Part shown: positions 22,400-41,465 of the stretch, piece after piece
Layout of the letters: each line of letters opens with the position of its first letter
Position numbering within the stretch: the stretch's first letter is position 1
Assembly (NCBI RefSeq): GCF_000379025.1
Contig: NZ_KB900617.1
Span: 922,820-986,819 of the forward strand
Direction of reading: 5' to 3'
Source of the DNA: Orenia marismortui DSM 5156
GTDB taxonomy: Bacteria > Bacillota > Halanaerobiia > Halobacteroidales > Halobacteroidaceae
Length of the DNA stretch: 64,000 nt
Notes under the pieces: generated by a model
Told to the model about the DNA's origin: nothing
Database searches by the model: none
What the model saw: only the letters and a program-made list of their open reading frames with translations
Position numbers and translations under genes: made by a program

Positions 22400-22571
22400 A
22401 TAAAGTAAATTCTTAGTTTCAAAGGAAGTTTTATGCCAAGTCGATTCGGTAGTACCAGGATCAACATTCCATATAAAATAGGAGATAGTAGTTATCTCCC
22501 TCTGAAACTTAGTCCCAAGGGATAACCTAAAGAACAGACCCTAGAACGAACCCAGAATCATAGTGTTCGAT
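22400..22571. repeat. Structured repeat related to the insert in the TPP riboswitch
   Basis: Bases 22400-22433 match 41225-41258 with about two differences (TAAATTCTTAGTTTCAAAGG core). Further shared blocks follow: ATCTCCC, TGAAACTTA and TAGAAC..AA.CCA.AA.CATAGT. The copy here has two extra segments, about 60 and 30 bases, each able to form hairpins (GGAGATAGTAGTTATCTCC). Outer arms pair in both copies (AGTTTCA with TGAAACT). Not matched to any RNA family I know. Confidence 0.7.
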
Positions 22572-22660
22572 AAGATCTATTATTACTTACATAATATCAG
22601 AATTTAATACTTTTTTCATCTTAATTATCTAAAGATCAAATATATATAAATTGCAATATA

Positions 22661-23864
22661 AAATGCACGGTTTTTTATTTACTCAATACCTCATAAATTT
22701 TAAGCTGCCTTTAACTGTTCTTCAAATATATAATTTGCATTCTTAAACCCAAACATTTTTCGTGGATAATTATTTATCCATCGCTCAATTCTTTTAACTT
22801 CATTTCTGCTAATATTCTTAAAGCTACTTCCTTTTGGTAAAAACCTTCTAATCATTTTATTTAAATTCTCATTACTACCTCTTTGCCAAGAACAATAAGC
22901 ATCAGCATAATATTGACTAGTTCTTGAGATATCACTTCCTGTAAAGGAAGTTTCTATCCCTTCATAATCATAGAATTCTTTACCATTATCTGTAGTTATA
23001 GTTTTAAATAAGTCTCTAAATTTTCTAACTCCTATTCTTCTTTCTACGCGATCTAATCCTTTTATTACAGATTCTTGAGTCTTATTAGGTATTAGTTCTA
23101 TTATTTCTTTGCGACTATATCTCTCTGTTAAAACTAATAAAAAGGGCTCATCTTTACCTTTCCTACCCTCTACTAAGTCCATTTCCCAATGACCTATTTC
23201 TGACCTTTTATCAGCTTCCTTAGGCCTATCTGATATCTTTCTTCCCTCTTTTCTCCTTTTTGTTGATTCTTTTTCTTTCTGTTTAGATTTATTAGTCTTT
23301 TTATATCTACCATAAACCAAATCTTCTCTATCTATAAACAGAATGCCTTTATCTATATAATTATATATCGTCTTCCAATGTATTTTAATTTCAAACCCAT
23401 CATCCTCTTTAATCATCTCTGCAATTACCTCTGGAGAATAATTTCCTTTTATTTTTTCTTCTATGAATTCAGCTAATTGATGATCTTTTCCTATTTTAAT
23501 CTTAGCTCCTTTAGCAGTCGCATTGTTATCATATAAGTTTTGAGCTATATCAGCATCGTATTCTATTCTTTTAGTGTAATCTGAATTTAATAATACAAGC
23601 TTTCCCCTTTCAATTTCTCGACTTATTGTCGTCCTATGCCTCCCTAACTCTCTTGCTATTGCTGTCTTCGATTTGTTTTGTATATTATATAAATGTTCTA
23701 TTATCTTTCTCTCTTCCCACTTTAAATGTTTTCCTTTTCTACTTTTTGTGTTATAATTATTTTGGCACATATTTAATACCTCCAATGTTTGCTTTGGTCA
23801 GTTAACATTATATATGAGGTATTAATGTGTGTCATTTTTTATTTTTTGAACTATCCGTGCATTT
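22661..23864. mobile_element. IS30-family insertion sequence
   Basis: 1.2-kb element with one transposase gene. Terminal inverted repeats AAATGCACGG (22661-22670) and CCGTGCATTT (23855-23864) are perfect over 10 bases. No clear short target duplication touches the ends, but a 14-bp direct repeat (AAAGATCAAATATA) lies 16 bases outside each end, at 22631-22644 and 23881-23894. Confidence 0.88.
22700..23770 (-). CDS. IS30-family transposase
   Basis: DDE transposase of 356 residues from the ATG at 23770 (an upstream TTG would contain the GGAGG site). N-terminal helix-turn-helix: KHLKWEERKIIEHLY and KTAIARELGRHRTTISREIERG. Catalytic residues: Asp in GHWEMDLVEG, Asp in TITTDNGKEF, and Glu in RGSNENLNKMIRRFLPKG. 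The frame is intact from end to end, so the copy may be active. Confidence 0.95.
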   Translation of the reverse strand: MCQNNYNTKSRKGKHLKWEERKIIEHLYNIQNKSKTAIARELGRHRTTISREIERGKLVLLNSDYTKRIEYDADIAQNLYDNNATAKGAKIKIGKDHQLAEFIEEKIKGNYSPEVIAEMIKEDDGFEIKIHWKTIYNYIDKGILFIDREDLVYGRYKKTNKSKQKEKESTKRRKEGRKISDRPKEADKRSEIGHWEMDLVEGRKGKDEPFLLVLTERYSRKEIIELIPNKTQESVIKGLDRVERRIGVRKFRDLFKTITTDNGKEFYDYEGIETSFTGSDISRTSQYYADAYCSWQRGSNENLNKMIRRFLPKGSSFKNISRNEVKRIERWINNYPRKMFGFKNANYIFEEQLKAA

Positions 23865-41056: not shown

Positions 41057-41106
41057 AATCCACCTCCTTATTAAAGTTTTATAGGAATTAAGTATTAGAT
41101 AAATTA

Positions 41107-41136
41107 AAAATGCTCCCTATATAGGGAGCATTTTTT
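41107..41136 (-). terminator. Riboswitch-controlled terminator of the thi operon
   Basis: Stem TGCTCCCTAT with ATAGGGAGCA plus T5, between aptamer and thiS: the expected expression platform for transcription attenuation. Confidence 0.92.
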
Positions 41137-41179
41137 AGTAAAAAGCCTAATTGATCATTAAGCTTATATATCTAAATCC

Positions 41180-41397
41180 ACTTCCCTACGCTGGCACTAA
41201 CCAGATCAGGTTAAAGAGTTAGAGATAAATTAAATTCTTAGTTTCAAAGGGAGTTTTTATCTCCCAATGAAACTTAATAGAACTAATCCAAAACCATAGT
41301 ACTTCTTTATCTCCCACTTATTAGATGTGAGAGTTTTAGAAGCACTTAGATGTCGGATAAATCTCCTCTCAGCCTATAAACTTAGGCACCCCTAGCT
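41180..41397 (-). promoter_or_regulatory. TPP (THI-box) riboswitch with a long inserted arm
   Basis: Minus strand: GGGGTGCC, GGCTGAGAGGAGA, then after a long arm ACCTGATCTGGTTAGTGCCA and GCGTAGGGAAGTGG, the full THI-box core. TPP binding should favour the terminator downstream and shut off thiSGHFE. Between CTGAGA and ACCTGATC there are about 150 bases, far longer than usual; part of it is homologous to the repeat at 22400. Confidence 0.95.
41225..41305. repeat. Insertion in the P3 arm of the TPP riboswitch
   Basis: Plus strand AGTTTCA-AA-GGGAG, 7-base loop, CTCCC-AA-TGAAACT forms a clean stem-loop; flanks and stem match the repeat at 22400-22571. Confidence 0.75.
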
Positions 41398-41465
41398 TTT
41401 CATATTCTATTTTAACTATATTATATTCCATTTCTTTGATTATTTCAATTAACTTTTCTTAGACC

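What the first reader, a model, noticed from the sequence alone, without database searches (positions are those of the whole stretch)
22400..22571. Structured repeat shared with the TPP riboswitch arm
A 34-bp block nearly identical to the insertion in the thi-operon riboswitch is followed by further homologous blocks in the same order, interrupted by two extra hairpin-forming segments. Paired outer arms and modular insertions look like a structured RNA element that can move and vary in size. I know of no family that fits; it could be undescribed.
Basis: seen in the sequence. Interest (0 to 1): 0.75.

Follow-up and report, generated by a model that had tools for sequence, protein, structure and literature searches.

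The report
Mobile two-hairpin element, also inside riboswitch
The stretch is a decayed copy of a small mobile DNA element that folds into two hairpins, jumps next to the sequence ATAAA, is scattered through many Bacillota genomes, has even landed inside a vitamin-B1 riboswitch here, and has no entry in the RNA-family database; what moves it is still unknown.

Summary
22400-22574 and 41225-41361 are two copies of one repeat family. The 41225 copy is full length (132 nt plus the target ATAAA) and sits inside helix P3 of the thi-operon TPP riboswitch. The 22400 copy carries two extra modules and has lost its 3' hairpin. The own genome has about 18 sites. Covariance models find the family in 38 of 398 sampled genomes of the phylum (31 genera), with up to 51 hits in one genome. 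It is not in Rfam 15. The two-hairpin fold is strongly supported: 194 paired changes against 49 expected.

A clean empty site (and a second, less clean one) shows that the unit inserts directly 5' of ATAAA (3' of TTTAT on the other strand) without duplicating the target. It has no terminal inverted repeats, and its ends are subterminal hairpins: the marks of IS200/IS605-type single-strand transposition. However, no transposase gene with these ends was found, and four genomes with 8 to 51 hits have no Y1 transposase at all. Wobble pairs are rare (26 of 958), so the fold looks maintained at DNA level. Best reading: an uncatalogued, modular, non-autonomous hairpin element with an unidentified helper. 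'Undescribed mobile structured element' is right; 'RNA element' is not shown.

The parts
22400..22574 (+). Element copy with modules X and Y; second hairpin deleted; right-hand target-like 5-mer ATAAG at 22570-22574
   Evidence: R1/R2 hit G000:C1:945219-945393, E 2e-4 and 1e-4
22412..22428 (+). Hairpin 1, 5' arm (CTTAGTTTCAAAGGAAG)
   Evidence: Read; helix 1
22429..22495 (+). Module X in the loop of hairpin 1; tandem in other copies (edges approximate)
22496..22512 (+). Hairpin 1, 3' arm (CTCCCTCTGAAACTTAG)
   Evidence: helix 1
22513..22543 (+). Module Y in the linker (edges approximate)
22544..22569 (+). Linker plus remnant of the 3' end; hairpin 2 deleted between about 22563 and 22564
41225..41356 (+). 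Complete core element (132 nt) inserted in TPP-riboswitch helix P3, antisense to the riboswitch
   Evidence: E 5e-23; orthologous copy in G001 (L049), deletion scar in G002
41357..41361 (+). ATAAA target of this copy (TTTAT on the transferred strand)
   Evidence: Insertion rule from the empty site
41166..41224 (-). TPP riboswitch, 3' part (host of the insertion)
   Evidence: Rfam RF00059, 45.8 bits, below gathering score
41362..41403 (-). TPP riboswitch, 5' part (host of the insertion)
   Evidence: Weak RF00059 hit 41287-41403; G002 aptamer without the insert passes at 74.3 bits

Best explanation
A non-autonomous mobile element of about 130 bp, spread over the phylum, whose two ends are each a long hairpin with fixed mismatches. 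Written on the transferred strand it lies 3' of TTTAT, starts CCGATAGCTAAC.. and ends ..TTTAT or ..TTGAT. It behaves like the ends-only derivatives of IS200/IS605 elements: an enzyme recognises the folded single strand, cuts it out next to the pentanucleotide, and rejoins it 3' of another TTTAT without duplicating the target (mechanism inferred). Optional internal modules are added or lost in the hairpin loops. In the window one copy landed in TPP-riboswitch helix P3 before the sampled Orenia species split, and the 22400 copy is a decayed relative. Shown: family, fold, covariation, boundaries, target, absence of duplication. Inferred: single-strand transfer and action of a helper in trans. The helper is unidentified.
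For: Dispersed copies in the own genome and relatives; 38 of 398 genomes and 31 genera; 51 hits in G398, 41 of the copies read there being nearly identical, end to end, with random flanks. Clean empty site..GGCTGGG-ATAAA-AAACTT.. against ..GGCTGGG-[ATCAACAGAG...CTATCGG]-ATAAAAAACTT..; a second site follows the same rule. In G398 the left 5-mer is ATAAA in 37 of 41 copies, the right one in 27 of 41, more variable than the element body (p 0.007), so the right one is host sequence. Tandem copies share one 5-mer. Covariation 194 against 49 (shuffled) and at most 40 (slid). G-U 26, A-C 18 of 958 cells. IS200/IS605 elements lack inverted repeats and duplications, carry end hairpins and insert 3' of a tetra- or pentanucleotide (PMC7290912); TTTAT is a known left-end motif of tnpB elements (PMC10640517).
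Against: No Y1 transposase with these ends was found. G164, G186, G329 and G398 hold the family without any Y1 match. A guide at the 5' foot of the hairpins, as in IS608, is not evident. Only one fully clean empty site was read. Single-strand transfer was not tested.
Confidence: 0.62

Rival explanations
1. A true structured RNA (small RNA or cis-regulatory leader) whose RNA is the selected form, possibly copied back into DNA by a reverse transcriptase.
For: Strong covariation. A divergent set of copies lies mostly sense and just upstream of genes (polC-rimP, gpsA-spoIVA, pstA-pstB, modA-modB, before rpoB), with G-U 42 against A-C 13.
Against: Across genera G-U is nearly as rare as A-C (26 and 18 of 958). 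Recent copies in the class and in G398 are more often antisense than sense (37 against 16). The G-U excess of the divergent copies may come from model-fitted alignment or transcription-linked mutation. No fixed gene association. No transcript data.
Confidence: 0.12
2. A classical MITE moved by a DDE transposase that duplicates a fixed 5-bp target (ATAAA).
For: ATAAA stands at both ends of many copies.
Against: The empty site shows one ATAAA, and the filled site has ATCAA at the left and ATAAA at the right. The two 5-mers differ in 14 of 41 G398 copies. No terminal inverted repeats.
Confidence: 0.05
3. A BOX-like modular repeat with no transposase of its own, of uncertain mover, that grows by adding modules and can fuse with riboswitches.
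For: Variable number of internal modules between fixed ends and a composite with a riboswitch; BOX elements show both features (PMC3049150). No mover found.
Against: No sequence link to BOX was tested. The insertion rule (TTTAT, no duplication) is more specific than this label. This view overlaps with the best explanation.
Confidence: 0.13

Closest known systems
IS200/IS605 ends-only derivatives (palindrome-associated transposable elements, PATEs; PMC7290912, PMC3119063)
   Same: End hairpins, no inverted repeats, no target duplication, insertion 3' of a fixed pentanucleotide, no gene of its own.
   Different: No parent IS with these ends found; present in genomes without Y1 transposase; conserved over many genera; long covarying hairpins with repeated CTTA/TTAG mismatches; extra modules.
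BOX elements of Streptococcus pneumoniae (PMC3049150)
   Same: Modular short repeat with a variable number of internal modules, strong secondary structure, a composite with a riboswitch reported.
   Different: Restricted to streptococci in the cited paper; target and module sequences differ (read, not aligned).
Classical prokaryotic MITEs (PMC10969869)
   Same: Short, intergenic, AT-rich targets, high copy number, folded.
   Different: No terminal inverted repeats and no target duplication here.
TPP riboswitch, Rfam RF00059
   Same: It is the host of the 41225 copy, split by it in helix P3.
   Different: The element is not part of the riboswitch family; it occurs at unrelated sites elsewhere.

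Membership tests
IS200/IS605 (as a non-autonomous derivative) | no target-site duplication; insertion 3' of a fixed tetra- or pentanucleotide | tested here: met
   Empty site G186/G069, TTTAT, no duplication; last 5-mer behaves as host target
IS200/IS605 (as a non-autonomous derivative) | no terminal inverted repeats, a hairpin near each end | tested here: met
IS200/IS605 (as a non-autonomous derivative) | parent element with a Y1 transposase and the same ends | tested here: not met
   No end motif or model hit at 38 Y1 loci; no Y1 at all in four carrier genomes
IS200/IS605 (as a non-autonomous derivative) | guide sequence at the 5' foot of each hairpin that pairs with the cleavage site | tested here: inconclusive
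   CTAA stands 5' of the hairpins but matches TTTAT in 3 bases only; the better complement (GGATAA) is on the 3' side and not conserved
IS200/IS605 (as a non-autonomous derivative) | single-strand excision and insertion by an HUH enzyme | not testable with these tools
   needs an assay
Any Rfam 15 family | score at or above the gathering threshold over the element | tested here: not met
   permissive search of the 22400 copy
Classical MITE | terminal inverted repeats and target duplication | tested here: not met
BOX element | sequence homology to boxA, boxB or boxC | not tested
   no BOX sequence was aligned

The most novel reading that the evidence does not exclude
A phylum-wide mobile hairpin element that uses single-strand, TTTAT-directed transfer without any IS200/IS605 transposase, i.e. 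moved by an unrecognised or host-encoded enzyme, and that is a free-standing lineage, not a cut-down insertion sequence.
Probability: 0.2. Interest if true: 0.85.

Novelty: new variant of a known kind. Interest (0 to 1): 0.57.

Why it matters
Non-autonomous bacterial elements are usually confined to a species or genus and tied to a resident insertion sequence (general knowledge). This one keeps the same fold and target over at least 31 sampled genera and reaches 51 model hits in a genome with no Y1 transposase, so it offers a direct handle on an unknown mover. It also shows a riboswitch that has kept a 137-nt mobile insertion in P3 through a species split, which pushes the aptamer below the database threshold. 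A covariance model would annotate many unexplained intergenic hairpins in Bacillota.

Tried and rejected
Rfam family: rejected. Plain IS end: no IS with these ends among 38 Y1 loci, and no longer version in G398. DDE MITE with ATAAA duplication: rejected by the empty site. IS30 next to the window copy as mover: the element ends show no inverted repeats; neighbourhood only. HEARO, group II intron and IS110 bridge RNA: considered from memory; Rfam gives no match over the element, and flanks beyond ATAAA are random, which argues against a long guided target. Clean empty TPP site: the G002 riboswitch turned out to hold a deletion scar (ATAA-TCGGATAAA), not an empty site. Apparent kinship of hairpin 2 with the IS605 left-end hairpin of G405 and G069 (CTCCC..TCTATA..GGGAG): limited to the palindrome, not pursued. 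Plasmids (one 30-bp match), phages and viral contigs: essentially nothing. Papers: no report found in the open-access library for the terms tried.

Full report
OBSERVATION. The 33-base block at 22400-22432 recurs at 41225-41257 at 94% identity, and a 25-base end probe has exactly two hits in the window against none in 100 shuffles. The following blocks are in the same order, with two additional segments in the 22400 copy. The own genome (3.46 Mb; a same-genus relative is Orenia metallireducens MSL40) gives 27 BLAST matches that merge into about 18 sites. So the finding is a repeat family, not a pair.

ANATOMY. Collecting both ends shows complete units that begin ATAAAGTGA(G/C)TTCTTAG and end TCGGATAAA, 56 to 408 nt long. 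The core is about 136 nt: hairpin 1, a linker with CGAATCC or CTTATCC, then a long stem containing hairpin 2 and closed by ATCC/GGAT. Optional module X (GCCAAGTCGATTCGGTAGTACC..GATCAACATTGCG) lies in the loop of hairpin 1, singly or in tandem, and in hairpin 2 in genome G025. Its own stem changes in step between copies (CCACGATC/GATCGTGG, CTGGCCTC/GAGGGCAG, CTGGGATC/GATCGCAG; read). Module Y sits in the linker. The window copy 22400-22574 has X and Y but has lost hairpin 2. The copy 41225-41361 is complete.

THE RIBOSWITCH. The thi-operon TPP aptamer runs on the minus strand. Its 5' part (about 41403-41362) and 3' part (41224-41166) flank the 41225 element, which sits in P3. The aptamer scores 45.8 bits here and 41.9 in G001, which has the insertion at the same place (gathering score 54.3). 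In G002, which keeps only the scar GGAGATAA-TCGGATAAATCC, it scores 74.3. The insertion therefore predates the split of these Orenia genomes and was later deleted internally in one. On the transcribed strand the insert folds well (-47.4 kcal/mol, z -6.8).

FAMILY AND FOLD. Model R1 (14 cores) found 37 hits in six genomes of the class, including divergent copies. Model R2 (31 cores) found hits in 38 of 398 genomes drawn from the phylum, 31 genera, to E 1e-17 outside the class. No element copy matches Rfam. Covariation: on A3, 97 cells with changes on both sides against 27 in shuffles and at most 29 when the partner is slid; on A4, mostly one copy per genome, 194 against 49 and at most 40, with 92% of cells paired. 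These alignments were fitted to the model, so the percentage paired is biased upward; the slid and shuffled controls and the original MAFFT alignment (9 pairs with double changes) point the same way.

DNA OR RNA. Among 27 aligned copies, 869 cells are Watson-Crick, 26 G-U, 18 A-C. A folded RNA under selection would be expected to carry many more G-U than A-C cells (general knowledge). Recent copies in the class and in G398 lie more often antisense (37) than sense (16) between codirectional genes (p 0.005). A divergent set looks different: mostly sense, G-U 42 against A-C 13. This could reflect later use in mRNA, transcription-linked mutation, or fitting bias; it is left open. Orientation was judged with a simple ORF caller.

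INSERTION RULE. G398 has 51 model hits, and 41 copies were read in full. They share no flanking sequence; the left 5-mer is ATAAA in 37 of 41 and the right in 27 of 41. Body divergence predicts 17% off-consensus 5-mers; the right one is off in 34% (p 0.007), so it is host target. The direct test is G186 against G069. The empty site reads GGCTGGG-ATAAA-AAACTTTT; the filled site reads GGCTGGG-[ATCAACAGAG...CTATCGG]-ATAAAAAACTTTT. The insert is 129 bp, placed directly 5' of ATAAA, without duplication, and its own left 5-mer is ATCAA. A second site on the other strand follows the same rule, with GTAT in two empty relatives against TTAT in the filled one. Tandem copies share one 5-mer. On the transferred strand this is insertion 3' of TTTAT. 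Those are features of IS200/IS605 elements: no inverted repeats, no duplication, insertion 3' of a fixed tetra- or pentanucleotide, hairpins at both ends (PMC7290912). TTTAT is a reported left-end motif for tnpB elements (PMC10640517).

THE MISSING MOVER. Y1 transposase genes occur in 13 of 17 genomes checked but in none of G164, G186, G329 and G398, which have at least 8, 14, 11 and 51 hits. None of 38 Y1 loci holds a model hit, and direct end searches failed. A 48-nt fragment of the element lies about 200 bp upstream of one Y1 gene in G239; with many copies per genome one such neighbour is not surprising. In G398 BLAST found no gene-bearing version. Drafts can miss collapsed repeats, so absence is not final.

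VERDICT. An uncatalogued, widespread, modular, non-autonomous hairpin element with an IS200/IS605-like insertion rule and no identified enzyme. Modular growth and a composite with a riboswitch recall BOX repeats (PMC3049150). No published description was found in the open-access library, which does not include most subscription papers or ISfinder.

Noticed in passing
window 22700-23785 (-); L003, L020, L101: IS30-family transposase genes lie within about 300 bp of four element copies, including the window one. Possibly shared intergenic hot spots.
   Followed up: partly
L101, L107, L114, L118, L136, L137 (genome G004): In G004 the diverged copies all lie in sense just upstream of genes (rpoB, rimP, a SPOR-like gene, spoIVA and two others), unlike recent copies elsewhere.
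   Followed up: partly
L106 1501-1624, L122 1501-1632: Orthologous copies upstream of modB in G001 and G002 have diverged strongly while the flanks stayed alike; possible co-option.
   Followed up: no
L111 1501-1620, L135: An element copy sits in a group II intron of G004, apparently copied along with the intron.
   Followed up: no
window 41103-41135: Terminator-like hairpin (GCTCCCTATATAGGGAGCATTTTTT) just downstream of the TPP aptamer on the minus strand, as expected for a riboswitch expression platform.
   Followed up: no
L142, L145: Two congeneric genomes (G073, by its exact length probably Syntrophomonas wolfei, from memory; and G189) share an orthologous insertion next to a PyrR binding site.
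   Followed up: no
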